From Paracoccus sp. SMMA_5_TC (GTDB lineage Bacteria; Pseudomonadota; Alphaproteobacteria; Rhodobacterales; Rhodobacteraceae): DNA of 64,000 nucleotides. A program made the translations under genes and the position numbers. The stretch covers positions 62,001 to 126,000 of the forward strand of contig NZ_CP102355.1 in NCBI RefSeq assembly GCF_009696685.2. The letters are read 5' to 3'. A model generated the notes under the pieces. The model was not told the DNA's origin and ran no database searches. It saw only the letters and a list, made by a program, of their open reading frames with translations. Of this stretch, positions 14,258-48,910 are shown in pieces (position 1 is the first letter of the stretch; the number at the start of each line of letters is the position of its first letter).

Positions 14258-15646
14258 TCATTTGCCCATCAATTCCTCTTCGACCCGCATGCCGCCGACG
14301 ACGCCCAGCGACTTCAGCTTGCGGTGCAGGGCCGAACGTTCCATGCCGACGAATTGCGCGGTGCGGCTGATATTGCCGCCAAAGCGGTTGATCTGCGCCA
14401 GCAGGTATTCGCGCTCGAAAAGTTCGCGTGCCTCGCGCAGCGCCAGGCTGGTGATCTGCGGCCCCAGCGCCAGCGCCTCGCTGGTCGAGGTGCTGCCGTT
14501 CTGGGTTTCCAGTTCCGACGGCTGGATCGGCCCGTTGCCGTCCCCCAGGATCAGCACCCGTTCGATGACGTTGCGCAGCTGGCGGATGTTGCCCGGCCAG
14601 TGCATTGCCTGCAACGCGGCGCAGGTTTCCTCGCTGAGGCGACGCAGCGGCAGCCCCTGCACCTGGTGGAAATGCTCGACGAAATGTTCGGCCAGCAGCG
14701 GGATGTCGTCGCGCCGTTCGGCCAGCGAAGGCACCGCAACCGGCACCACGTTCAGACGATCGTAAAGTTCCTGGCGAAAACGTCCGGCGGCGATTTCGGC
14801 CGTCAGGTCGCGGTTGGTCGAGGAAATCACCCGCAGATCCACCCGCACCTTGTCGGTCCCCCCGGCACGCTGGAACTGCTGTTCGGTCAGCACGCGCAGG
14901 ATCTTGGGCTGGGTGCCCAGCGGCATGTCGGCGACCTCGTCGAAATAGATCACGCCGCCATGCGCCTGTTCCAGCAGCCCCGGCTCGACGCCGCGACCGG
15001 GGGTCTCGCGGCCGAACAGCACCTCTTCCATGTGCTCGGGCTCGATGGTGGCGCAGGGCACGGTGACAAAGGGTTCGCGGGCGCGCGGGCTCTGGGCGTG
15101 GATATAGCGCGCCGCGCATTCCTTGCCGGCACCCGGTTCGCCGGTCAGCATCACCCGACCGTTCGATTTCGCCACCTTGTCCAGCTGTTCGCGCATCCGA
15201 CGGAACGGGGCGGAATTGCCCAGCATTTCGGCCGCGCGGCTTTCGCCGCGCTTCAGGGTCGAGTTCTCGCGCCGTAGCCGTGCGGTTTCCATCGCCCGGC
15301 GGATCACCACCAGCAACTGGTCGATGTTGAACGGCTTTTCGATGAAATCATAGGCGCCCTGCTTGATCGCGGCGACGGCGATTTCGATGTTGCCGTGCCC
15401 CGAGATGATGACTACCGGCACATCGGGATTGTTGCGCTTGACCTGCTTGAGAATGTCGATGCCGTCCATCTTGCTGTCCTTCAGCCAGATGTCCAGGATC
15501 ATCAGGGCAGGTTCGACGGCGTTCAGTTCCGCCATCGCCTGATCGGAATTGGCCGCCATGCGCGTCGCAAAACCTTCGTCGCGCAGGATATCGGAAATCA
15601 GTTCGCGGATGTCGCGTTCGTCATCGACAATCAGAATATCGCTCAT
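14258..15646 (-). CDS. ntrX: response regulator NtrX (no GAFTGA)
   Basis: The 462-residue regulator is the partner of NtrY. The receiver domain (1-120) has phosphoacceptor D52 and K in EKPF. The AAA+ domain has Walker A GEPGAGKE and Walker B GGVIYFDEVADM. The sigma-54-contacting GAFTGA loop is absent: after VLFGRETPGRG the sequence goes straight to LLEQAHGG. The C-terminal Fis-type helix-turn-helix is present (GNISRTAQFVGMERSALHRK). Loss of GAFTGA implies sigma-70 regulation or repression rather than classical sigma-54 activation. Its start overlaps the ntrY stop (ATGA). Confidence 0.95.
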   Translation of the reverse strand: MSDILIVDDERDIRELISDILRDEGFATRMAANSDQAMAELNAVEPALMILDIWLKDSKMDGIDILKQVKRNNPDVPVVIISGHGNIEIAVAAIKQGAYDFIEKPFNIDQLLVVIRRAMETARLRRENSTLKRGESRAAEMLGNSAPFRRMREQLDKVAKSNGRVMLTGEPGAGKECAARYIHAQSPRAREPFVTVPCATIEPEHMEEVLFGRETPGRGVEPGLLEQAHGGVIYFDEVADMPLGTQPKILRVLTEQQFQRAGGTDKVRVDLRVISSTNRDLTAEIAAGRFRQELYDRLNVVPVAVPSLAERRDDIPLLAEHFVEHFHQVQGLPLRRLSEETCAALQAMHWPGNIRQLRNVIERVLILGDGNGPIQPSELETQNGSTSTSEALALGPQITSLALREARELFEREYLLAQINRFGGNISRTAQFVGMERSALHRKLKSLGVVGGMRVEEELMGK

Positions 15647-17985: not shown

Positions 17986-19422
17986 TTACATCAGTTTGCG
18001 GCGCCGTGTCACCTCGATATTCAGCTCGGTCAGTTTCTTGCGCAGCGTATTGCGGTTGATGCCCAGCAAATCGGCACAGCGCAGCTGATTGCCGCCGGTC
18101 GCATCCAGCGCGATCTGCAACAAGGGGCGCTCGATCTCGCGCAGGATGCGGTCGTAAAGACCGGGGGGCGGCAAGGCATCGCCGTGCAGGTCGAAATAGC
18201 GCTGCAAATGCGCCTGAACGGATTGTGCCAGACGCATCTCGCCCGGTTGGATCGGCGCGGCAGTGCTGCCGGCAACAGATGCAGGCGCCGCCTGCAAGGC
18301 CACGGCCGGGGCGGTTTCGGCCAGAGCGGCCCGAGCCTCGGCCTGGGTGATCTCGGGCGCGGCGGCGGTCAGCGCCAGACGGCGCATCAGGTTTTCCAGT
18401 TCGCGCACATTGCCGGGAAAGGCATGGGCGCGGATCGCGGCGGCGGCCCCCTCCGACAGGGTCCGGCGCGGCAGCCCCTGGGCCGCGGCCCGCGCCAGCA
18501 GATGTCGTGCCAGGGGCGGAATATCATCGACGCGGGCGCGCAGCGGCGGCACCGTGATGGTGACACCGGCCAGGCGGTAATACAGATCGGCGCGCAGGCG
18601 GCCGGCGGCCACATCGGCCTGCGGATCGGGGCCGGCGGTGGCCAGCAGCCGCGGCACCTGCGCGCGGCCGGGGCCGGCCTCCCATGTCTCGATCATGCCG
18701 ATCAACCGCGCCTGGGCAACTGCGTCCAGGCTGGCCGGATCCTCGATCAGCAGGGTGCCGGCCTGGGCGCGTTCGCCGGCGCGCTGGATCGCCTCGTCCG
18801 CGACATCGGCCGAGGTCAGCACCGCCAGCCCCGCCGCGCGCCGGTCCGACAGGTCGTGGAACGACCGCGCCAGCATGGTCCTGCCCACCCCCGGCTCGCC
18901 CGCGATCAGCACCGGCAGATCGGCGTTCAGCACCCGCGCCACCATGCGAAACAGGTTCTGCATGACCGGGGCATGGCCGATCAGCGGCAGGCCCGGATCA
19001 CCGTCCGGCGCCACCACCCCGGCATCGTCCTGAACCGGTTGCGGATCGACACGCCGCGGCCGCTGCGCCAGCGCCTGCCCGGCACGCTGCATCAGCTCGG
19101 GCAGATCGAAGGGCTTGGGCAGATAGTCGAAGGCCGCCGCCTCGGTCGCGCGGATGGCGGTGACGATGGTGTTCTGCGCCGAAATCACGATCACCGGCAG
19201 GTCGGCGCGGGCACGGCGGATGGCGGGAATCATGTCGATGCCGTTGCCGTCGGGCATCATCACGTCGGTGACGACCAGATCGCCGCGCCCCTCCTCGACC
19301 CAGCGCAACAGCTGCGCCAGCGAGCCGGTGGCATGGACGCGACAGCCGGCGCGGGTCAGCGCCTGGGTCAGCACCGTGCGGATGGTGCGGTCGTCATCGG
19401 CAAGCAGAACGGTCCCATCCAT
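17986..19422 (-). CDS. ntrC: nitrogen regulator NtrC, degenerate AAA+ type
   Basis: The 478-residue regulator has a receiver with D53 and K in LPKPFD, and a C-terminal Fis-type HTH (CADLLGINRNTLRKKL). The AAA+ domain is unusual. Walker A is GEPGVGRT (arginine in place of the key lysine), Walker B reads TLLIEDPAS rather than LDEIGD, and no GAFTGA loop is found. This agrees with Rhodobacter-type NtrC, which works with sigma-70, and goes further in the weakened nucleotide site. ntrB is encoded 8 bases upstream. Confidence 0.94.
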   Translation of the reverse strand: MDGTVLLADDDRTIRTVLTQALTRAGCRVHATGSLAQLLRWVEEGRGDLVVTDVMMPDGNGIDMIPAIRRARADLPVIVISAQNTIVTAIRATEAAAFDYLPKPFDLPELMQRAGQALAQRPRRVDPQPVQDDAGVVAPDGDPGLPLIGHAPVMQNLFRMVARVLNADLPVLIAGEPGVGRTMLARSFHDLSDRRAAGLAVLTSADVADEAIQRAGERAQAGTLLIEDPASLDAVAQARLIGMIETWEAGPGRAQVPRLLATAGPDPQADVAAGRLRADLYYRLAGVTITVPPLRARVDDIPPLARHLLARAAAQGLPRRTLSEGAAAAIRAHAFPGNVRELENLMRRLALTAAAPEITQAEARAALAETAPAVALQAAPASVAGSTAAPIQPGEMRLAQSVQAHLQRYFDLHGDALPPPGLYDRILREIERPLLQIALDATGGNQLRCADLLGINRNTLRKKLTELNIEVTRRRKLM

Positions 19423-40015: not shown

Positions 40016-41917
40016 TCAGTTCCCGATGCCCGACCCTTCGGGCGCGCCGCCCGATCCGGACAGGCCCAGACGCCGCATCCTTCGGTAGATGGTGCTTCGA
40101 TCCACCCCGGCCTGGCGCGCCGCAGCCGAGATATTGCCGTCGCATGCCGCGATCAGGCTGCGCAGCGCGCGCCCTTGCGTGGCACTGTCGCCCGGTGCCT
40201 GGCGGGCGGTTTCACCAATGCCTGCCGGCAGATCCTCGACCCCGACCAGCCCCCCGTCGCAAAGCGCGGCGCAGAGCGCGCAAAGATTGACGATCTCGCG
40301 CACATTTCCCGGCCAGTCATGCGCCAGCAGGCGGGCCATGGCGGCGGCGGAAAACCGTGGCTTTCCTTCGGTGGCATCGGCTATCCGGTCGATGAGCCAT
40401 TCCAGATCGGTGCGTGCGCGCACCGCGGGAATGTCAAGAATGAGCCCGTTCACACGATAATACAGATCCTGGCGGAACCTTCCTTCCGCCACCAGCGAGG
40501 CCAGATCCCGATGCGAGGCGGAAATCACCCGGATGTCCACCGGCTCGGGGCGCGAGGCGCCCACCGCCAGAACCTCGCGTTCCGACAGAACCCGCAGCAG
40601 CCGCGCCTGCAATGCCAGCGGCATGTCGCCGATCTCGTCCAGAAACAGGGTGCCGCCATGAGCCTCGCGGATCAGCCCCTTCTTGCCGCGGGCATGTGCG
40701 CCGGTGAAGGCATTCGGGGCATAGCCGAACAGTTCGCTTTCGATCAGCGCCTCGGGCAAGGCTGCGCAGTTGATCGCCACGAATGCCCCGCGCCGTCGTG
40801 ACGATGCATGAATCGCACGGGCGATGAATTCCTTGCCGGTGCCGGTTTCGCCGCGCAGGATGATGCTGATCTGTCGGTCGACGACCTTGGCCGCCCGCTC
40901 GGCCAGGCGTTGCATCGCGGGATCGCCACCATGAATCGCCGCCAGCGGCGCAGGCAGGCTGGGCACAGCGACGGCCCGGGGCGCGGTGCCCGGCGGCACG
41001 GCCCGGGCAAAGATCAACCCCCCGCCCAGAATTTCCAGCGCGCCATCGACCGGCGCCATCGCCCGCGACAGTTTCGGCAGGTCTTCAGGCTCACCGGCAA
41101 AGATGTCCTGGAAGCGGCGACCGATCAGCGGCGCGTCCGCGTCCGGGGCCAGCAAGTCGCGGGCATTATGGGTCATGCCGCTGATGCGACCGTCGGCGTC
41201 GATGGCCACGGCCGCCATGGGATCGACATCGAGAAACTCGGGCGAGGGGTTCAGCCGCAGGATCCAATCGCCGCGATGACGTCGCACCAGGTTCGCCATT
41301 TCGATACGCCGAACACAGGATTTCATCACCTCCAGCGTCAGGGCCTGGCTCATCTTGTCCTGCGGTGCCTGCAGATGGGACAGGTCAAGCACGCCGATAA
41401 GCCCGCCGCGCGTGCCGTGCAACGGCACGGCAGTGCAGGATAATGGCGTCAGCGCCAGATCAAAGTGATCGCTGCGATGAACGGTGATCGCCCTGCCGGT
41501 GGCCAGACAGGCGCCAACCCCGTTCGTTCCGACATGGTTTTCATTCCACTGCGAACCGGCGATCAGCCCGGCATGTCGCAGATCGCGGTCCAGCTGCGCA
41601 TCGCCGATGGCGTCGACGGTCACCCCATGGGCATTGGCCAGCAGCAGCACATATCCCATGGCATTCACGCGCCGATACAGATCCTCCATCCCGTGGCGCG
41701 CCATTTCCAGCAGCTCTTCGGATTCCTGCCGGTGCTGGCGCAGCTCGCCTTCGGTCAGGATGCGCGGGCCAAGCCGCCGGCCGGGCTCCAGCCGATATTC
41801 ACGCACGCAGCGGCGCCATGACGCCAGAACATCGGCATCGCGGCGCGGCGACATCTCGCCCTCGGCCACGCGCATGACTTCAAGGACATGCGTCCCATGG
41901 TCAGCCATTTCCAGCAT
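40016..41917 (-). CDS. acoR: sigma-54 activator AcoR
   Basis: This 633-residue regulator activates acetoin catabolism. Domains: N-terminal GAF-type sensor (about 70-200, with SQWNENHVGTNGVGACLATG), PAS-like middle, AAA+ (about 330-560; Walker A GETGTGKE, Walker B GGTLFLDEIGDM) and Fis-type HTH (NISAAARQAGVDRSTIYRRM). The sigma-54 contact loop reads NAFTGA instead of GAFTGA. ATG 41917 is preferred over GTG 41941 because GGGGAGG lies 5 bases before it. It is the last gene of the aco operon, 81 bases after bdhA. Confidence 0.93.
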   Translation of the reverse strand: MLEMADHGTHVLEVMRVAEGEMSPRRDADVLASWRRCVREYRLEPGRRLGPRILTEGELRQHRQESEELLEMARHGMEDLYRRVNAMGYVLLLANAHGVTVDAIGDAQLDRDLRHAGLIAGSQWNENHVGTNGVGACLATGRAITVHRSDHFDLALTPLSCTAVPLHGTRGGLIGVLDLSHLQAPQDKMSQALTLEVMKSCVRRIEMANLVRRHRGDWILRLNPSPEFLDVDPMAAVAIDADGRISGMTHNARDLLAPDADAPLIGRRFQDIFAGEPEDLPKLSRAMAPVDGALEILGGGLIFARAVPPGTAPRAVAVPSLPAPLAAIHGGDPAMQRLAERAAKVVDRQISIILRGETGTGKEFIARAIHASSRRRGAFVAINCAALPEALIESELFGYAPNAFTGAHARGKKGLIREAHGGTLFLDEIGDMPLALQARLLRVLSEREVLAVGASRPEPVDIRVISASHRDLASLVAEGRFRQDLYYRVNGLILDIPAVRARTDLEWLIDRIADATEGKPRFSAAAMARLLAHDWPGNVREIVNLCALCAALCDGGLVGVEDLPAGIGETARQAPGDSATQGRALRSLIAACDGNISAAARQAGVDRSTIYRRMRRLGLSGSGGAPEGSGIGN

Positions 41918-41998
41918 CGGTGCCTCCCCAGCCGCTGCCACAAGCCCCGTGCGACGATAGCATGAGACTGCCGCACGGGGGGATAGTTATTGCGCCGG

Positions 41999-43078
41999 CT
42001 AATCTGTCCGGGACATATCGATCAGGATCTTCAGGTGGCTGCCGGCCGGATCCAGCAGCGCGTCAAAGCCCTGGGTCACGGCCTCGCGCAAACCGATGCG
42101 GCCCGTCACCACCCTGCCCGCCGGAATCGCGCCCGAAGCAATCAGTTCGATGGTGCGGGGCCAGCTGTAGGTGGGATAGCACCACGATCCGCGGATTTCG
42201 GCATCCTTGAAGGTCAGCTGAAAGAAGTCGACGCTGCCCTTGCCGGGATGCAGGCCGGTCTGGACGATCACGCCCTGCTTGCGCACTGCCTCCAGGCAGG
42301 ATTGCAGGGCCCGTTCGCTGCCCACGCATTCCAGCGCCACGTCGCAACCCAGCCCCGATGTCGAGGCCGCGCGGACGATTTCCCCCAGGTTTTCACGGGC
42401 AGGGTTGACGGTGACCACGCCCGGCACCACCTGCGCGGCCAGCGCCAGCCTGGTGTCGTTGATGTCCGACACGATAAGCCGGGTGGCACCAAAGGCGCGC
42501 GCGGTCATCAGGGCTAGGATGCCGATGGGGCCGGCACCCGTCACCAGCACGCAATCGCCTGCCCGAACACCGCCCCGGTCGCAGGCATAGACGCAAACCG
42601 CTGTCGGCTCGACAAGCGCGGCTTCCTCGTCGGTCATGGTGTCGGGAATGCGCTCGACGTTATAATCGTTGAGCAGCGCCATCTCGGCCATGCCGCCCCA
42701 GGGCCAGGACAATCCGACCAGCGCCAGACTGGCCGACAGGTTGTGCCAGCCGCGATCGGCGAAATGTTCGCCACTGCGCGGCATGACCAGAGGCTGCACC
42801 GCAACGCGATCGCCGGGCGCAACCTTGCTGACGCCCGGACCCACCGCGATCACGGTGCCGCCGAATTCATGGCCCAGCACCTGCGGCCCCTGCGCACCCG
42901 TGTAGGGATGCGGGGTTTGCGGAATGAAGATCGGGCCCGAGACATATTCATGCAGATCGGTCCCGCAGATGCCGACATGGCTGTTGCGGACCAGAACCTG
43001 GCCCGGACCGGGCTGCGGCGGTTCGGCGATATCGTCGATCCGCAAGTCCCTTCTGGCGTGAAAACGCAATGCCTTCAT
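41999..43078 (-). CDS. bdhA: 2,3-butanediol dehydrogenase (zinc MDR family)
   Basis: The 359-residue NAD-dependent enzyme oxidises 2,3-butanediol to acetoin. The catalytic zinc site is seen in GICGTDLHEY and GHEFGG; the structural-zinc cysteines are missing, as in (R,R)-butanediol dehydrogenases. The Rossmann motif is GAGPIGILAL and the substrate-domain segment ECVGSERALQ. It feeds acetoin into the AcoABC reaction encoded upstream. Confidence 0.9.
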   Translation of the reverse strand: MKALRFHARRDLRIDDIAEPPQPGPGQVLVRNSHVGICGTDLHEYVSGPIFIPQTPHPYTGAQGPQVLGHEFGGTVIAVGPGVSKVAPGDRVAVQPLVMPRSGEHFADRGWHNLSASLALVGLSWPWGGMAEMALLNDYNVERIPDTMTDEEAALVEPTAVCVYACDRGGVRAGDCVLVTGAGPIGILALMTARAFGATRLIVSDINDTRLALAAQVVPGVVTVNPARENLGEIVRAASTSGLGCDVALECVGSERALQSCLEAVRKQGVIVQTGLHPGKGSVDFFQLTFKDAEIRGSWCYPTYSWPRTIELIASGAIPAGRVVTGRIGLREAVTQGFDALLDPAGSHLKILIDMSRTD

Positions 43079-43087
43079 GATGTCACC

Positions 43088-43417
43088 TCACAACGCATCG
43101 AATGCAGCCAGCGCCTTGCCGGCATAGACCGTGCCCGGCCCGCCCGACATCTCGATGGCGACGGCGAGCACTTCGACCAGTTCATCGCGGCTGGCGCCGT
43201 GCTGTTTGGCCGCACTGGTATGAAACAGGATGCAATCCTCGCAGCCGCGCCCTATGGCCACGGCGACCGCAACCAGTTCCTTGGTGGCGGCCCCCAACCT
43301 GCCGGCGCGATTGGCCGCGGTCATGACGCCGCGAAAGGCGGTCATGGTCTGTGGATCGGCCTTGTGAAGGGCGACCGCGCGCGCATTCACCTCGGCCAGC
43401 TTCTGCTGAACGTTCAC
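43088..43417 (-). CDS. carboxymuconolactone decarboxylase/AhpD-like protein
   Basis: The 109-residue helical protein has the CMD motif GRGCEDCILFH (C59, C62, H66), a thiol pair like that of AhpD, so peroxidase or disulfide reductase activity is more likely than lactone decarboxylation. It sits between acoC and bdhA (9-base gap to bdhA). AhpD partners the lipoyl dehydrogenase/E2 system in mycobacteria, so use of the AcoC lipoyl group as electron source is conceivable (inference). Confidence 0.85.
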   Translation of the reverse strand: MNVQQKLAEVNARAVALHKADPQTMTAFRGVMTAANRAGRLGAATKELVAVAVAIGRGCEDCILFHTSAAKQHGASRDELVEVLAVAIEMSGGPGTVYAGKALAAFDAL

Positions 43418-43442
43418 GGGTTTTTCCTTTTGCTGGACAAGC

Positions 43443-43473
43443 GACCGCCCCGGGACACCCGCCGGGGGCGGTC
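43443..43473 (-). repeat. stem-loop between acoC and the CMD gene
   Basis: GACCGCCCC (43443-43451) and GGGGCGGTC (43465-43473) form a 9-bp GC-rich stem six bases after the acoC stop. No T-run follows, so RNA stabilisation or partial termination within the operon is more likely than full termination. Confidence 0.6.
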
Positions 43474-43478
43474 AGGGG

Positions 43479-44582
43479 TCAGGCAATGAAGTCGCCGATC
43501 AGGCGATTGACCTCGGCCGATTGCTCCATCTGCACCATATGGCCGGCAGAGGGGATGACGTGGCATTCCGCGCCCGGCAGATTCGCGGCATGACCGGCCG
43601 GGATGATGGCGTCGGCCTGACCCCAGATCACCTGAACGGGCACGCCAGATGCCTGCAACGGGGCGACGATGGTTTCGCTTTGCCGGCCGTCCCGGAACAG
43701 TGCCGAAGCAAGATCGGACAGGAACCCCTGCACCCCGTCGAGGCGCTTGTATTTCAGCAAGTCCTCGACCATGGCGCGGCTGACCAGTGTCTGGTCGTGA
43801 AACAGCTGCGCCAGCACCGGCTTCAGCTCCTTGCGGCCGGCGGATCGGACAAAGCCGTCGATGTAATCGCCGTTGATCTCGGCCCCCAGCCCGGCAGGGC
43901 AGATCAGCGTCACCGACGCCACCCGCTGCGGCCGCGCGGCTGCGACTGCCCCGGCAATCAACCCGCCCATCGAATGGCCGACAAGATGCGCGCGTTCGAC
44001 GCCAAGGTGATCCATGAACGCCAGAACCGTGTCCACCATCAGCTTCAGATCGGCCGGTCCGGCAGTCTTGACGGAATGGCCGTGCCCCGGCAGGTCAAGG
44101 GCCAGCACCCGGCCGTGCTGGGTCAAGGCGTCGATATTGAACAGCCAGTTGTCCAGATCGCCGCCGAAACCATGGATCAGCACCAGGGGCGTTCCTTCGC
44201 CCGGCCGGTCGGCATAGCGGATGCGTCCCACCGGCAGTTCGGCGAATTCGTGGCGGGGTGCGTCATCCTGATCGTCGCTGTCAGCGGCCGGCATCTGCCA
44301 TGCCGCGACAAAGGCATCGATCTCGGCTTCGGGAACGGTTTCGGGCGCCATCACCCCCAGAAGCGCGCGCACCGGATAGGTCTGGCCCTGAACGCCGACA
44401 CGGCGGCGCAGCAGGCCCCCGTCCGCTGCCTCGACGACATTGGCGATCTTGTCGGTTTCGACATCCATGATCTCGTCGCCGGGGCTGATATGGGCACCTT
44501 CGGCCACGTGCCATGCGGCCAGCTTGCCCTCTTTCATCGACAGGCCCCATTTGGGCATCAGGATCGGTGTGATCTGGTCCAT
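43479..44582 (-). CDS. acoC: acetoin dehydrogenase E2 (dihydrolipoamide acetyltransferase, AcoC)
   Basis: The 367-residue protein has an N-terminal lipoyl domain (K45 in VETDKIANV), a linker, then an alpha/beta-hydrolase fold (from about 125; LVLIHGFGGDLDNW, nucleophile in GHSMGG, catalytic His in PSAGHMVQMEQ) in place of the usual E2 core. This is the standard AcoC build. It transfers the acetyl group from acetoin cleavage to CoA. ATG 44582 follows the acoB stop with one base between. Confidence 0.95.
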   Translation of the reverse strand: MDQITPILMPKWGLSMKEGKLAAWHVAEGAHISPGDEIMDVETDKIANVVEAADGGLLRRRVGVQGQTYPVRALLGVMAPETVPEAEIDAFVAAWQMPAADSDDQDDAPRHEFAELPVGRIRYADRPGEGTPLVLIHGFGGDLDNWLFNIDALTQHGRVLALDLPGHGHSVKTAGPADLKLMVDTVLAFMDHLGVERAHLVGHSMGGLIAGAVAAARPQRVASVTLICPAGLGAEINGDYIDGFVRSAGRKELKPVLAQLFHDQTLVSRAMVEDLLKYKRLDGVQGFLSDLASALFRDGRQSETIVAPLQASGVPVQVIWGQADAIIPAGHAANLPGAECHVIPSAGHMVQMEQSAEVNRLIGDFIA

Positions 44583-44583
44583 G

Positions 44584-45591
44584 TCAGTTCCCCATCGTCT
44601 TGCGCACGGCATCGGCGATACGCGCGGCCGAGGGCACATAGGCATCCTCGAGCGAGGGCGAGAACGGCACCGGGGCATGGGGCGGCGTCACCATCTGCAC
44701 AGCAGCGCGCAGGGAACCGAAGGCTTCCTGCGCCACCGTGGCCGCGATGTCGGCCGCGATCGAGCAGCGGGGATTGGCCTCATCGACACAGACCAGCCGT
44801 CCTGTCGCCTGGACGCTTTCCAGAACCGTATCGATGTCGATGGGCGACAGCGTGCGCAGGTCGATCACCTCGACCTCGATCCCGTCCCGCTTCAGCAGAT
44901 CGGCCGCCTCGACCGAGCGCCCCACCATCTGACCATAGGTGACGATGGTGGCATCGCCCCCTTCACGGACGATATTCGCCTCGCCAAAGGGGATGGTATA
45001 GGGTTCCTCGGGCACATCGGCCGTGCTGGCGTAAAGGTTCTTGTGCTCGAGAAAGATCACCGGATCGTTGTCGCGGATCGCCTGGATCAGCAACCCCTTG
45101 CAATCATAGGCGTTCGACGGACAGACGACCTTGAGCCCGGGCACATGGGCAAACAGGGGCGTCAGCATCTGACTGTGCTGGGCAGCAGCCCGGAAACCGG
45201 CCCCGCACATCGCCCGGATCACTACCGGAGTTTCGGCCTTGCCCCCGAACATGTAGCGGAACTTGGCCGCCTGGTTGAAGATCTGATCCAGGCAGACACC
45301 GACGAAATCGACGAACATCAGTTCCGCCACCGGGCGCAGCCCGGCCGTCGCCGCACCGATGGCGGCGCCGACATAGGCGCTTTCCGACAGGGGTGTGTCG
45401 ATCATCTGGTTGGGATGCTTGGCATAAAGCCCCTTGCTGACCCCCAGGACGCCGCCCCAGGCGTCCTCTTCGCCCTGGGTGCCGGCGCCGCCGACGATGT
45501 CCTCTCCCATCATGATGACGGTGGGATCGCGGGTCATTTCCTGATCCAGGGCCTCGTTGACCGCGTCCTTCATGCTGATGATGCGTGCCAT
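44584..45591 (-). CDS. acoB: acetoin dehydrogenase E1 beta
   Basis: The 335-residue subunit of the thiamine-dependent acetoin:acceptor oxidoreductase begins MARIISMKDAVNEALDQEM. Typical E1-beta parts are MMGEDIVGGAGTQGEEDAWG, AYVGAAIGAATAGLRPVAELM and the C-terminal domain with VTYGQMVG and VIDLRTLSPID. It pairs with AcoA encoded 13 bases upstream. Confidence 0.95.
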   Translation of the reverse strand: MARIISMKDAVNEALDQEMTRDPTVIMMGEDIVGGAGTQGEEDAWGGVLGVSKGLYAKHPNQMIDTPLSESAYVGAAIGAATAGLRPVAELMFVDFVGVCLDQIFNQAAKFRYMFGGKAETPVVIRAMCGAGFRAAAQHSQMLTPLFAHVPGLKVVCPSNAYDCKGLLIQAIRDNDPVIFLEHKNLYASTADVPEEPYTIPFGEANIVREGGDATIVTYGQMVGRSVEAADLLKRDGIEVEVIDLRTLSPIDIDTVLESVQATGRLVCVDEANPRCSIAADIAATVAQEAFGSLRAAVQMVTPPHAPVPFSPSLEDAYVPSAARIADAVRKTMGN

Positions 45592-45604
45592 GGCAATGCC
45601 TCCC

Positions 45605-46585
45605 TCAATAGCTCACGTAAACGTCGGTGGTCAGCTGCTCGGGTCCGGGCAGCGGGGCGGCAACAGCTTCGGCCACGGCCTCGTCGATCAGCGCCGCAAC
45701 CTCGGCGTCGATGGCATCCAGTTCGGCGTCCGAGATCACCCCGGCCTGGGTGACCTTTTGCCGAAACAGCTTCAGGCAATCGTTATGGGCGCGGTTGTAT
45801 TCATTCTCGCCCGGCGCCTTGTAGGTCTGGGCATCGCCTTCAAAATGGCCAAAGAAGCGCACGTTCTTGCATTCCAGCAACGTGGGTCCGGCACCCTCGC
45901 GCGCCCGCCGGATCACCTCGCCCGCAGCCTCGTAGACGGCGAAGAAATCGATGCCGTCCACGGTGATGCCCGGCATGCCGAAGCCGGCGGCGCGGTCCAC
46001 GTAGCTGTCCGAGGCAGTGGCGTAATCGACCGAGGTCGATTCGGCATAACCGTTGTTCTCGACCACGAAAATGGCCGGAAGGTTCCAGATCGCCGCCAGG
46101 TTCATGCTTTCCAGCACGGTGCCCTGGTTGGACGCGCCATCCCCGAAAAAGGTGATGCCCACACCGTCATGGCCCAGCTTCTGCGCCGCCAGTGCCGCCC
46201 CGCAGACCAGCGGTGCGCCCGCCCCCAGGATACCGTTTGCGCCCATCATGCCCAGCGACAGGTCGGCAATGTGCATCGACCCGCCCTTGCCCGCGCAGCA
46301 GCCGGTGGCCTTGCCATAGATTTCGGCCATCATCGCCTTGACGTCGACGCCCTTGGCGATGCAATGGCCATGGCCGCGATGGGTCGATGCGATACGGTCG
46401 CGGTCGTGCAGATGCATCATGATGCCGACAGCCGTCGCCTCCTCGCCGGCATATAGATGCACAAAGCCCGGAATCTCGCCCCGGGCGAAATCGACATGCA
46501 GTCGCTCTTCAAAGTCGCGGATGGTGCGCATCTTGCGATAGGCATCCAGCAGCCGCTCCTTTGGCAGTGGAAACGGATTGGACAT
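45605..46585 (-). CDS. acoA: acetoin dehydrogenase E1 alpha
   Basis: The 326-residue subunit binds thiamine diphosphate through GDGASNQGTVLE and ENNGYAES. The N-terminus RKMRTIRDFEERLHVDFARG is typical. ATG 46585 has AGGAG about 6 bases upstream. With AcoB it cleaves acetoin to acetaldehyde and an acetyl group passed to AcoC. No gene for a dedicated E3 was seen. Confidence 0.95.
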   Translation of the reverse strand: MSNPFPLPKERLLDAYRKMRTIRDFEERLHVDFARGEIPGFVHLYAGEEATAVGIMMHLHDRDRIASTHRGHGHCIAKGVDVKAMMAEIYGKATGCCAGKGGSMHIADLSLGMMGANGILGAGAPLVCGAALAAQKLGHDGVGITFFGDGASNQGTVLESMNLAAIWNLPAIFVVENNGYAESTSVDYATASDSYVDRAAGFGMPGITVDGIDFFAVYEAAGEVIRRAREGAGPTLLECKNVRFFGHFEGDAQTYKAPGENEYNRAHNDCLKLFRQKVTQAGVISDAELDAIDAEVAALIDEAVAEAVAAPLPGPEQLTTDVYVSY

Positions 46586-46605
46586 GAACTCCTCCCTCTT
46601 GTTGT

Positions 46606-47619
46606 TCAGTCTGGGTTGCACAGGAAAAGCCCCTCCTGCGCGGCATGAGCCATGCAGGCGGGCACATCGATGGTGTGAAACGCATCTGGAACCAGACGCA
46701 CCGAAACCCGGTCGCCGGGACCGAAGGTCAGTTCGCGCTCGCCGTCAAAAGCCAGGGCACCTTGCGCGATCGAAGGGACATGTCGCGCCCCGGGCTGCAT
46801 GACCTCGACCCCGGCGATGCCTACGCGCTCGATCAAACCGGGGGCGATCGGCGCCGCCAGCCACCGGCTTGCCCGGGGCGAAAGGCGGATGTGCCGGCCC
46901 TGTGGCGCGTCGCGGTCCAAGGGCGCGCACAGGCCCGCGATGGCCGACATGCCGATGGCCTGCGGCAGCCCGAAGGTCACGAACAGATCCCGAAACCCCT
47001 CGGCCTTCCAGATCGCACGGGCGCCAACATAGTGCTCTTCGACCACGGCGACATCGACCAGCGCGATTTCCCGGCGATCGTTCACCCTGACCTCGAGCCA
47101 TTTGTTGGCACGCAGCGCCGTCGCGGCAGGAACGCGGCCGCTGGCCGCCAGGCCCACCGCAAGGCCGGTGATCGTGGGTTCGCGCAATTCGGGAAAGGCG
47201 TTGTTGGTCCCGGTCGAGACCCCCGCCACCGGCACGGAACCGCAGGCGCCGACCACGACCCTGTTGGTGCCGTCGCCCCCCAGCACCACGATGGCGGCCA
47301 CAGCTTCGGCCGCCATCATTTCAGCCGCCGTGGCGCTGTCCTGGGCCGAGGCGGTAACCGGCATGTCCAGATAGCGCAGGCGCGGCAGGCCGCTGTGGCC
47401 CAGCCGCAGCTCGCGCCCGATGATGCGTTCCAGGTGAAAGCGGATGCCGCCGTTTTCGGGCATGACGACCACCTCGTCCACCCCGGCAGCGGCCAGCCCG
47501 GTCATCATCCGCAGCACGATATTGGCCCGGTCGTTGATGGGCAGATTGCCCGCATGGGAAATGACCCGACGGATGTCGCGGGCTGAAATCGGATTGGCGA
47601 TGATGCCGACCTTGACCAT
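46606..47619 (-). CDS. acoX: AcoX, NAD kinase-like protein
   Basis: The 337-residue protein belongs to the ATP-NAD kinase-like AcoX family, with IVVLGGDGTNR (the GGDGT motif) and GVSTGTNNAFP. Its role in acetoin use is not settled; it may modify or repair a cofactor. It is the first gene of the operon, with an AGGGAGGA ribosome site and a sigma-54 promoter just upstream. Confidence 0.93.
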   Translation of the reverse strand: MVKVGIIANPISARDIRRVISHAGNLPINDRANIVLRMMTGLAAAGVDEVVVMPENGGIRFHLERIIGRELRLGHSGLPRLRYLDMPVTASAQDSATAAEMMAAEAVAAIVVLGGDGTNRVVVGACGSVPVAGVSTGTNNAFPELREPTITGLAVGLAASGRVPAATALRANKWLEVRVNDRREIALVDVAVVEEHYVGARAIWKAEGFRDLFVTFGLPQAIGMSAIAGLCAPLDRDAPQGRHIRLSPRASRWLAAPIAPGLIERVGIAGVEVMQPGARHVPSIAQGALAFDGERELTFGPGDRVSVRLVPDAFHTIDVPACMAHAAQEGLFLCNPD

Positions 47620-47644
47620 GTTCGTCCTCCCTGCCCATCATGCA

Positions 47645-47660
47645 AGCAACGACCATGCCA
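47645..47660 (-). promoter_or_regulatory. sigma-54 (-24/-12) promoter of the aco operon
   Basis: The minus strand reads TGGCATGGTCGTTGCT (47660-47645), matching TGGCAY-R-N4-TTGCW in full. Predicted transcript start is near 47634, about 15 bases before the acoX ATG. Confidence 0.85.
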
Positions 47661-47714
47661 ATTCCTGACGCCACGATTCCAAGGGCTTTGAGCAGCACAC
47701 TGTTGCATCTGCCT

Positions 47715-47734
47715 GCCACACTGTGGCGCCACAG
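47715..47734. promoter_or_regulatory. probable AcoR upstream activator sites
   Basis: GCCACA-C-TGTGGC-GCCACA (47715-47733) gives three alternating half-sites and includes the perfect 14-base palindrome CTGTGGCGCCACAG (47721-47734). It is centred about 90 bases upstream of the predicted acoX start, the usual range for a sigma-54 activator, and only 13-32 bases before the rpoN ATG. Confidence 0.65.
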
Positions 47735-47746
47735 CAGGGACTGACG

Positions 47747-48910
47747 ATGCAAAGGCAGGACCAACGCCAGATCCGGGGATTGAAGCTGAGCCAGCACATG
47801 CGGCTATCGCTTGACCTTCTGGCGATGGACGCGGGCCGCATTCGACGCCGTCTGCGGCTCGAGGCATCGCGCAATCCCTTCCTTGTGCTTTCCGAACCCG
47901 CCGAAAGCATCTCGGCCCGTCAGGCACTGCTGGGTCAGATCGGTCTGTTGCGGTTGGCGCGCGAGCAGGCAGAGCTGGCCCGGGCGCTGGTGCATTGCCT
48001 GGACGATCATGGTCTGCTGGCCGAGCCGCTGGCCGAGATTGCCGGCTGGCTGGAGGTGCCCGTCCCCCGGATCGAGGCGCTGCTGCCCGTGTTGCAGGAA
48101 CTGGAGCCGCCGGGCGTCTTTGCCCGCGACCTGCCCGAGGCGCTGGCGCTGCAATTGCGCGCGCGGGGTCGCCTCGACCCGATGATCGGGCGGCTGCTGA
48201 CGCGGCTGGATCTGGTCGCGGCGCGCGACATCGCCGCGATCCAGGCTTTTTGCGGCTGCGACGCCGAAGATGCGTCCGACATGATTGCCGACCTGCACAG
48301 CCTGTCGCCGGTTTCTCTGGGCGATGACACCCCGGAGCTGATCGCGCCGGAACTCTTGCTGACTGCGGATGGCGGCTTGCGGCTGCTTGATGCCCCGTCC
48401 GCGATGTTCGAGGGCACAGCTGGCGCGGCTGCGACCGATAGGCAGGCAGCCCTGGCGCGGGCCCTTGTGGCGGGCTGCAATGCGCGTCAGGCCACGCTCT
48501 TGCGCGTGGCAAGGCTGATGGTCGCCACGCAGGCCGGGTTCCTGCTGCACGGGCGCGCGCCAAGACCATTGACCCTCGGTGATCTGGCAAGCCGGTCGGG
48601 GCTTGCGCGCAGCACGATCAGTCGCTGCATCGCGGGGGTGGCGATGCAGGCTCCGCGCGGCACGCTGTTCCTGCGCGAGTTGCTGCTGGCGCCCGCCAGC
48701 CCGGACAACCCCGAGCTTGGCCCGCGACAATTGCGCCAAGCACTGCAAGACGTGATCGCAACCTGGCCAGACGGACTCAGGTTGTCGGATGCCGCGCTTA
48801 CCGAAGAACTGGCCCGCCGCGGCATACATCTGGCCCGGCGCACCGTGGCGAAATACCGGGCCGATCTGGGCGTGCCGGGATGGAACCGAGGGCGCAACAT
48901 CCAGGGCTGA
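47747..48910 (+). CDS. rpoN: short divergent sigma-54 factor (RpoN paralogue)
   Basis: The 387-residue sigma-54 is about 100 residues shorter than typical. Region I is present but altered (GLKLSQHMRLSLDLLAMDAG, RNPFLVL), the acidic linker is missing, the core-binding and HTH regions are present (LTLGDLASRSGLARSTISR), and the RpoN box ARRTVAKYR is intact near the C-terminus. An AGGGA ribosome site lies 8 bases upstream of ATG 47747. It diverges from acoX, so a dedicated role in acetoin expression is likely (inference). Its presence does not exclude a main rpoN elsewhere. Confidence 0.9.
   Translation: MQRQDQRQIRGLKLSQHMRLSLDLLAMDAGRIRRRLRLEASRNPFLVLSEPAESISARQALLGQIGLLRLAREQAELARALVHCLDDHGLLAEPLAEIAGWLEVPVPRIEALLPVLQELEPPGVFARDLPEALALQLRARGRLDPMIGRLLTRLDLVAARDIAAIQAFCGCDAEDASDMIADLHSLSPVSLGDDTPELIAPELLLTADGGLRLLDAPSAMFEGTAGAAATDRQAALARALVAGCNARQATLLRVARLMVATQAGFLLHGRAPRPLTLGDLASRSGLARSTISRCIAGVAMQAPRGTLFLRELLLAPASPDNPELGPRQLRQALQDVIATWPDGLRLSDAALTEELARRGIHLARRTVAKYRADLGVPGWNRGRNIQG

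What the first reader, a model, noticed from the sequence alone, without database searches (positions are those of the whole stretch)
40016..48910. Self-contained acetoin system with its own sigma-54
Seen: acoXABC-CMD-bdhA-acoR with a full-match -24/-12 promoter, TGTGGC half-sites about 90 bases upstream of the start, and a 387-residue divergent rpoN sharing the control region. Known: aco operons need AcoR and sigma-54, but rpoN is normally a housekeeping single gene; Rhodobacter has specialised copies for nif and flagella. Inference: this rpoN is dedicated to acetoin/butanediol use, a compact and possibly mobile sigma-54 circuit. The half-sites 13-32 bases before the rpoN ATG may also make AcoR control its own sigma factor.
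Basis: partly seen in the sequence, partly recalled or inferred. Interest (0 to 1): 0.75.

Follow-up and report, generated by a model that had tools for sequence, protein, structure and literature searches.

The report
Acetoin operon with its own sigma-54
In Paracoccus and some related bacteria the gene cluster for eating acetoin carries its own private sigma-54 transcription factor, often the only sigma-54 in the cell, and the two appear to be inherited and transferred together, so a factor usually thought of as a general-purpose part can travel as the property of one operon.

Summary
The locus is real. acoXABC-CMD-bdhA-acoR faces a divergent 387-residue rpoN across a 127-bp control region with a TGGCAT-N5-TTGC promoter and two TGTNGC palindromes. 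That test assumed rpoN is housekeeping. It is not in this genus: 107 of 125 Paracoccus genomes lack rpoN above cut-off. acoX occurs in exactly 11 of 125, and all 11 have this rpoN beside it. In these 11, AcoR is the only activator with an intact AFTGA loop among the candidates inspected.

Twenty aco-linked RpoNs (Paracoccus, Sinirhodobacter, Nioella, Actibacterium, Ruegeria, Defluviimonas, a MAG, Brucella pseudintermedia) form one clade (100/100); in 18 of the 20 genomes it is the only rpoN. The Brucella locus is 99.4% identical over 10.1 kb to a Paracoccus plasmid, in a genome with a canonical sigma-54 elsewhere. rpoN is under purifying selection but evolves fastest in the cluster. Best reading: an operon-captive, horizontally moving one-sigma/one-activator circuit, predicted to control one promoter. 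Function, regulon and AcoR control of rpoN are untested. Precedents: Cereibacter's specialised RpoNs; a published note on P. denitrificans' single N-AFTGA activator. New variant of a known kind.

The parts
47747..48910 (+). rpoN, 387-aa sigma-54 of the aco-linked clade (in-frame GTG at 47723 possible but inside a palindrome)
   Evidence: Pfam AID/CBD/DBD above cut-off; aligns to solved sigma-54 over residues 59-383; only Sigma54_DBD in genome; clade with 19 other aco-linked RpoNs
46606..47619 (-). acoX, NAD-kinase-like protein of acetoin operons
   Evidence: Pfam NAD_kinase; present in exactly the 11 of 125 Paracoccus genomes with this rpoN
45605..46621 (-). acoA, E1 alpha of acetoin dehydrogenase
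   Evidence: Pfam E1_dh; 91-97% identical in 10 other Paracoccus loci
44584..45591 (-). acoB, E1 beta
   Evidence: Transket_pyr and Transketolase_C
43479..44582 (-). acoC, E2 acetyltransferase with alpha/beta hydrolase domain
   Evidence: NF011457 equivalog cut-off met
43088..43417 (-). carboxymuconolactone decarboxylase-family small protein (GTG start)
   Evidence: ORF; same position in P. denitrificans PD1222 plasmid 1, annotated CMD family
41999..43078 (-). bdhA-like zinc alcohol dehydrogenase, probable 2,3-butanediol dehydrogenase
   Evidence: Pfam ADH_N/ADH_zinc_N; orthologue annotated 2,3-butanediol dehydrogenase
40016..41941 (-). acoR, GAF-AAA+-Fis activator with NAFTGA loop
   Evidence: Pfam Sigma54_activat, GAF, HTH_8; motif; only AFTGA-bearing candidate of 6 in the genome
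47645..47660 (-). -24/-12 promoter of acoX, TGGCATGGTCGTTGCT
   Evidence: same spacing to acoX, within 1 bp, in 9 of 10 short Paracoccus control regions by strict pattern
47701..47720 (.). palindrome 1 (TGTTGC-N8-GCCACA), probable AcoR enhancer site
   Evidence: same distance from acoX in 10 of 12 control regions; 2 of 200 shuffles reach it in the window
47722..47733 (.). palindrome 2 (TGTGGCGCCACA), probable AcoR site ending 13 bp before the rpoN ATG
   Evidence: 0 of 200 shuffles; the other 3 genome matches to TGTKGCGCMACA lie inside ORFs

Best explanation
This is an operon-captive sigma-54 circuit. RpoN, AcoR and the acoX promoter form a closed set: AcoR senses acetoin (or a relative) through its GAF domain, binds the two TGTNGC palindromes, and uses its AAA+ loop to open RNA polymerase carrying this RpoN at the -24/-12 promoter, transcribing acoXABC-CMD-bdhA-acoR. 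Because acoR is last in the row of genes, activation feeds back on AcoR. rpoN is divergent, with its start codon 13 bp from the proximal palindrome, so AcoR binding probably also affects rpoN (sign unknown). With no other rpoN and no other AFTGA activator found among the candidates inspected, the regulon is predicted to be this one promoter. The set is inherited, and at least once transferred, as a unit. Shown: gene content, sole rpoN, linkage, clade, conserved promoter and palindromes, purifying selection, one near-identical copy in another order. Inferred: ligand, binding, dependence of acoX on this RpoN, regulon of one, feedback on rpoN.
For: Only rpoN in the genome. Sigma54_DBD above cut-off in 18 of 125 Paracoccus. 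acoX in 11 of 125, orthologous AcoR at 72% or more in the same 11, rpoN divergent beside acoX in all 11: gap 124-135 bp in 10, and 1.8 kb with a transposase gene in one. Fisher on 11/0 against 7/107: p = 1.7e-11, not corrected for kinship. Immediate flanking genes of the window locus not found in the fetched stretches of the other 10. In named genomes rpoN, one of them split, lies with aco in 17 of 25 fetched stretches. Twenty aco RpoNs are one clade: SH-aLRT 100 with 82 rows, 100/100 with 65 rows. It is the only rpoN in 18 of those 20 genomes. Own genome: 5 of 5 non-AcoR candidates lack the AFTGA loop. Ten other aco genomes: 0 of 64 inspected non-AcoR candidates have it, 10 of 10 AcoRs do. 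acoX -24/-12 site found in 11 of 11 tested outside loci whose genome has an rpoN (one of them the split Frigidibacter gene) and 0 of 4 whose genome has none. dN/dS of rpoN 0.16-0.45. Brucella pseudintermedia: 10,079 bp at 99.4% identity to a P. kondratievae plasmid, in a genome with a second, canonical rpoN.
Against: No expression, binding or mutant data. The promoter scan used exact consensus only, so weaker sigma-54 sites elsewhere are not excluded. The own genome holds a GAFPGA activator (C2:201101) whose sigma-54 dependence is judged only by its motif. Thalassospira has the same operon and NAFTGA AcoR with only a canonical rpoN elsewhere, so AcoR does not strictly need the captive RpoN. 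Removing either half of the RpoN clade makes the other half attach at different places, so long-branch attraction is not fully excluded. All 10 plasmid records with this rpoN are typed non-mobilizable by PLSDB, and the flank of the Brucella copy matches widespread mobile elements, so neither vehicle nor host assignment of that contig is settled. The palindromes are re-spaced or weak in G026 and G011. RpoN falls below NCBIfam's equivalog cut-off (196.6 vs 277.35).
Confidence: 0.78

Rival explanations
1. General sigma-54 that happens to sit beside aco: it serves several promoters (nitrogen, transport), as rpoN does in most proteobacteria, and linkage reflects location only.
For: It is the only rpoN; five further Sigma54_activat-like proteins exist in the genome, one with a nearly complete GAFPGA loop; 5 exact promoter matches exist.
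Against: 107 of 125 Paracoccus live without rpoN above cut-off; linkage 11 of 11 with unshared flanks; the non-AcoR activators lack AFTGA, and GAFPGA proteins also occur in rpoN-less genomes; Francke et al. (PMC3162934, passages read) class replacements at position 4 other than S, E and perhaps D as inactive, and note a preference for Pro among defective homologues; the other 4 promoter matches lie in frames with coding-like composition, one of them weak.
Confidence: 0.12
2. Passenger or decaying rpoN: it is too divergent to work, and aco is read by sigma-70 or regulated otherwise.
For: Fastest-evolving gene of the cluster in 9 of 9 pairs; below NCBIfam equivalog cut-offs; a split rpoN beside a deleted acoX in Frigidibacter.
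Against: dN/dS 0.16-0.45; all three sigma-54 domains and the RpoN box kept; promoter and spacing conserved; aco operons in rpoN-less MAGs also lack the promoter, 0 of 4.
Confidence: 0.05
3. Two independent captures: Paracoccus-type and Ruegeria-type aco clusters each recruited a different rpoN, and the tree joins them by long-branch attraction.
For: Long stems of 0.55 and 0.82; with one half removed the other attaches elsewhere; Thalassospira, next to the Paracoccus type in the aco tree, has no linked rpoN.
Against: 100/100 support under a site-heterogeneous model; a region-I motif in 20 of 20 aco and 0 of 62 other RpoNs, though the motif was chosen after seeing the alignment; the same divergent rpoN-acoX order in Actibacterium and Ruegeria sp. 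HKCCD8929.
Confidence: 0.15

Closest known systems
Specialised RpoN paralogues of Cereibacter (Rhodobacter) sphaeroides: RpoN1/NifA, RpoN2/FleQ, RpoN3/AprX (PMC11999139, passages read)
   Same: A sigma-54 devoted to one activator and one gene set, in the same order of bacteria.
   Different: There four RpoNs coexist in one cell with 5 bona fide activators. Here the captive RpoN is the only sigma-54 in 18 of 20 genomes, sits beside its own operon, and has moved with it. The four RpoNs of G174, a four-copy genome in the family survey, fall outside the aco clade.
Classical AcoR/sigma-54 acetoin operons (Bacillus, Pseudomonas, Cupriavidus; recalled, with AcoR as an EBP class in PMC3162934)
   Same: acoXABC genes, AcoR architecture, -24/-12 promoter.
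   Different: Those use the host's general sigma-54 (recalled). Here the operon brings its own.
The single EBP of P. denitrificans and Ruegeria pomeroyi with G1 replaced by N (Francke et al. 2011, PMC3162934, Fig. 3 legend read)
   Same: Almost certainly this AcoR: the P. denitrificans orthologue here has NAFTGA, and the R. pomeroyi strain here has NSFTGA.
   Different: In the passages read, the paper ties it neither to acetoin nor to the adjacent rpoN, a clade or transfer.
P. aminophilus JCM 7686 sole rpoN on plasmid pAMI4 (PMC3925955, passages read)
   Same: A single, plasmid-borne rpoN in a Paracoccus.
   Different: The authors read it as nitrogen-related. No acoX lies in any of the 7 Paracoccus genomes here that have a different rpoN.

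Membership tests
Sigma-54 (RpoN) family | Activator-interacting, core-binding and DNA-binding domains | tested here: met
   PF00309 33.0, PF04963 98.7, PF04552 101.3 bits, all over cut-off
Sigma-54 (RpoN) family | RpoN box (ARRTVAKYR; motif recalled) | tested here: met
   LARRTVAKYR aligned to a solved sigma-54
Sigma-54 (RpoN) family | NCBIfam rpoN equivalog score TIGR02395 | tested here: not met
   196.6 bits against 277.35: divergent member, so I claim the superfamily, not that equivalog
Sigma-54 (RpoN) family | Transcription from -24/-12 promoters only with an activator | not testable with these tools
   needs in vitro or in vivo transcription
AcoR-type sigma-54 activator | GAF, AAA+ and Fis-type HTH domains | tested here: met
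AcoR-type sigma-54 activator | GAFTGA loop able to contact sigma-54 | tested here: inconclusive
   NAFTGA; PMC3162934 legend places N at position 1 among functional substitutions, citing this very organism group
Acetoin dehydrogenase operon | acoA, acoB, acoC with E2 equivalog | tested here: met
   NF011457 485.4 against 307 bits; E1 domains
Acetoin dehydrogenase operon | Induction by acetoin and growth on it | not testable with these tools
   no expression or growth data
Specialised, cluster-dedicated RpoN | Conserved linkage and separate clade | tested here: met
   11 of 11 Paracoccus with acoX; one clade of 20
Specialised, cluster-dedicated RpoN | Not exchangeable with other RpoNs | not tested
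   requires cross-complementation

The most novel reading that the evidence does not exclude
The aco-RpoN clade and its AcoR are an orthogonal pair that works in any host, insulated from housekeeping sigma-54: the altered region I (MR-x-SL-x-LL-x-MD) and the N/H-x-FTGA loop evolved together, so the operon carries a private polymerase specificity and can enter hosts with no sigma-54 or with a different one. Sigma-54 would then spread partly as a cargo of catabolic islands, and the patchy sigma-54 of Rhodobacterales would be a set of such captive modules after loss of the ancestral gene.
Probability: 0.3. Interest if true: 0.78.

Novelty: new variant of a known kind. Interest (0 to 1): 0.62.

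Why it matters
Sigma-54 is usually treated as a global, host-owned factor with many activators. Here it behaves as the property of one operon. This predicts a natural one-sigma/one-activator/one-promoter system in the model organism P. denitrificans (on plasmid 1), a clean setting for sigma-54 mechanism and activator specificity, and it explains how a sigma-54 operon can work in a genus that mostly lacks sigma-54. It also warns that finding the only rpoN in a genome does not mean nitrogen control or other general roles.

Tried and rejected
Extra-copy idea: rejected, one rpoN only. Nitrogen role for this rpoN: the NtrC and NtrX of the window (17986-19422, 14258-15646) lack the loop. Co-adaptation of the N-AFTGA loop with the captive RpoN: tested and not clean, because Thalassospira AcoR also has N while its only rpoN is a canonical copy elsewhere, and of the best 120 AcoR homologues (listed out of 5225) 8 have GAFTGA, 110 have N or H first, 2 gave no motif. 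The region-I motif was found by eye and then counted: 20 of 20 against 0 of 62. Among 107 database RpoNs the same expression matched 20, all within the 25 most similar; the five it missed there carry Ile at one place, so it is too strict. Long-branch test: inconclusive. The first look at EBP frames read some wrong strands and was replaced. In one search eight loci needed re-inspection (six read in a wrong frame, one false 'intact', one without a read) and were re-read. Rows dropped from trees: named duplicates of loci already present, and the split Frigidibacter rpoN; 17 further non-aco rows in the careful tree. No structure prediction was run.

Not in print: I found no paper describing aco-linked rpoN (open-access PMC library only; hits seen as listings and abstract starts, except passages of PMC3162934, PMC3925955, PMC11999139 and PMC12316311).
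Full report
What is there. Minus-strand genes acoX, acoA, acoB, acoC, a CMD-family gene, a bdhA-like dehydrogenase and acoR run from 47619 down to 40016. rpoN starts at 47747 on the plus strand. P. denitrificans PD1222 plasmid 1 shows the same gene order with RefSeq names, including 2,3-butanediol dehydrogenase and 'RNA polymerase sigma 54 subunit RpoN', plus an SDR gene (annotated glucose 1-dehydrogenase) between acoC and CMD that the window lacks.

Is rpoN an extra copy? No. Sigma54_DBD is found once in the genome; the same search rings in 4 of 14 control genomes. But across 125 Paracoccus genomes the domain passes the cut-off in only 18 (20 at E<=0.001, two of them sub-cut-off scraps). In a family survey, almost one genome per genus, it passes in 130 of 394. 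So sigma-54 is accessory here, and 'only copy' does not mean 'housekeeping'.

Linkage. Using AcoR as query, 11 of 125 genomes have an orthologue at 72-100% identity. All other hits are at 53% or less except one 70% fragment in G074. Each of the 11 has rpoN divergent from acoX on the same contig. acoX itself occurs in exactly those 11. The gap is 124-135 bp in 10. The window's immediate flanking genes (an ArsR-type regulator; GNAT- and AHSA1-type genes, named by eye) were not found in the other 10 fetched stretches. In G074 only the 3' part of acoR remains, beside a recombinase-like gene (by eye) and next to the same two flanking genes as in G011: apparently a deletion scar in which the aco genes and rpoN are both gone. 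In the family survey acoX occurs in 4 of 394 genomes: the window's, two with rpoN in the same stretch, and one MAG without.

Control region. acoX has a -24/-12 match at a nearly fixed distance from its start in 9 of 10 short control regions by strict pattern; the tenth (G020) reads TGGCCC. Two palindromes built on TGTNGC lie at about 81 and 102 bp from acoX in 10 of 12 regions examined (11 Paracoccus and Sinirhodobacter). At that place palindrome 1 is reached by 2 or fewer of 200 shuffles in 9 of 12, and palindrome 2 in 7 of 12; G026 and G011 have a re-spaced variant. In the own genome the strict sigma-54 consensus occurs 5 times, and only the acoX site lies clearly between genes; the other four lie in frames with coding-like composition, one of them (C1:145126) in a weak 178-aa frame. 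The second palindrome has 3 other matches, all inside ORFs.

One activator. Of six Sigma54_activat-like proteins in the own genome, leaving out a Clp-type hit, only AcoR (NAFTGA) keeps the loop. The others are GAFPGA or deleted. In the ten other aco genomes, 10 of 10 AcoRs have NAFTGA and none of 64 other candidates inspected has an intact AFTGA (9; 55). Eleven candidates from ten rpoN-less genomes also lack it. Among 18 loci of AcoR relatives at about 41-46% identity (L046-L064 without the G074 fragment), my Walker-A pattern matched 5, and these show a shortened loop region; 4 of the 5 genomes are rpoN-less, the fifth (G064) has a different rpoN. Francke et al. 2011 (PMC3162934, passages read) already noted that the single EBP of P. 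denitrificans and R. pomeroyi has N at position 1, and that changes at position 4, often to Pro, mark lost sigma-54 contact.

Beyond Paracoccus. A named-genome scan with acoX gave 25 loci. rpoN lies in the fetched stretch in 17: seven Paracoccus, Sinirhodobacter, Brucella pseudintermedia, two Nioella, Actibacterium, two Ruegeria, Defluviimonas, one MAG, and Frigidibacter, where rpoN is split and acoX has lost its middle. It is absent in 8: two Thalassospira, an Amaricoccus MAG whose contig starts 733 bp before acoX, and five MAG loci. Whole-genome search of 17 of these genomes (the seven Paracoccus and the MAG of L110 were not in it): Thalassospira have one canonical rpoN elsewhere; the Amaricoccus MAG has one elsewhere; four MAGs have none; Brucella and Actibacterium have two. 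Those four MAGs also lack the -24/-12 site before acoX, and the three with enough sequence show no AcoR. All 11 tested loci whose genome has an rpoN (the split Frigidibacter one included) do have the site. MAG incompleteness is a caveat.

Clade and transfer. In a tree of 82 RpoNs the 20 aco-linked ones are one clade (SH-aLRT 100); in a 65-row careful tree support is 100/100. In the aco XAB tree the Paracoccus type (14 rows, 97) lies next to Thalassospira, and the seven Ruegeria-type loci lie on the other side together with the four rpoN-less MAGs (100). In the AcoR tree Thalassospira falls inside the Paracoccus type at an unresolved fork. Loss of rpoN by Thalassospira, which has its own sigma-54, is the simplest reading but is not shown. 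Brucella pseudintermedia carries 10,079 bp at 99.4% identity to the P. kondratievae plasmid, with RpoN nearly identical, in a genome that also has a canonical rpoN. The matching protein cluster bears the name 'MULTISPECIES ... [Brucella/Ochrobactrum group]' (P0003), so more than one genome of that group seems to hold it, which argues against a single contaminated assembly; who owns its longest contig (1.81 Mb) is not told. The neighbouring 13.9 kb match group II introns and insertion sequences of many plasmids, so they do not settle the host. Ten plasmid records carry the gene, all Paracoccus and all typed non-mobilizable.

Rates. rpoN has the highest dN/dS of seven genes in all 9 pairs tested, 0.16 to 0.45 (pairs not independent). 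That means constrained, but less so than its neighbours, as expected of a sigma factor with very few promoters.

Mechanism and limits. The anatomy fits activation of one operon by AcoR with this RpoN. No expression evidence exists here. AcoR acting on rpoN is plausible only from the palindrome ending 13 bp before the start codon. The strict link between loop variant and captive RpoN fails in Thalassospira. The exact-consensus promoter scan could miss weaker sites.

Known or new. C. sphaeroides shows dedicated RpoN-activator pairs (PMC11999139, passages read). An operon-captive sigma-54 that is usually the cell's only one and travels with its operon was not found in the searches listed under Tried and rejected. 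I call it a new variant of a known kind.

Noticed in passing
L076-L082 (the 7 other Paracoccus rpoN loci): The other Paracoccus RpoNs also sit in specific clusters: flagellar-type genes (L076, named from sequence by eye), a phenol/alkene hydroxylase-type cluster (L079; a matching reductase gene in L081), a contractile-tail cluster (L080), and directly beside an activator gene (L078, L082) or near one with an ABC transporter (L077, transporter by eye). An AFTGA/AYTGA activator lies within the stretch in 4 of 7.
   Followed up: partly
window 14258-15646 and 17986-19422: NtrX and NtrC homologues (named by eye) lack the GAFTGA loop, as expected for sigma-54-independent nitrogen control in this group.
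   Followed up: partly
L046-L064: AcoR relatives at about 41-46% identity, mostly in rpoN-less Paracoccus; where read (5 of 18 loci) the AAA+ loop region is shortened, suggesting conversion to sigma-54-independent regulators.
   Followed up: partly
L074:12466-13821: A DDE transposase gene inserted between acoX and its promoter/rpoN in G011 (P. alkenifer); how acoX is read there is unclear.
   Followed up: partly
L075:3315-4187: Solitary acoR 3' fragment in G074, beside a recombinase-like gene and the same flanking genes as the intact cluster of G011.
   Followed up: partly
L116:8344-10360: Frigidibacter rpoN is split across frames and the neighbouring acoX has lost its middle; decay or assembly error.
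   Followed up: no
window 43418-43479: The SDR (annotated glucose 1-dehydrogenase) present between acoC and the CMD gene in P. denitrificans, with a matching gap size in other Paracoccus clusters, is missing in the window.
   Followed up: partly
L103:5943-8782 and L106:5894-8733: In Nioella and R. pomeroyi genes looking like a xanthine/CO-dehydrogenase-type oxidoreductase (by eye) lie between rpoN and acoX.
   Followed up: no
intergenic region about 50-75 bp upstream of acoX (alignment): A partly conserved GGGRTTTT-like stretch between promoter and palindromes, not assigned (rpoN promoter or bend site).
   Followed up: no
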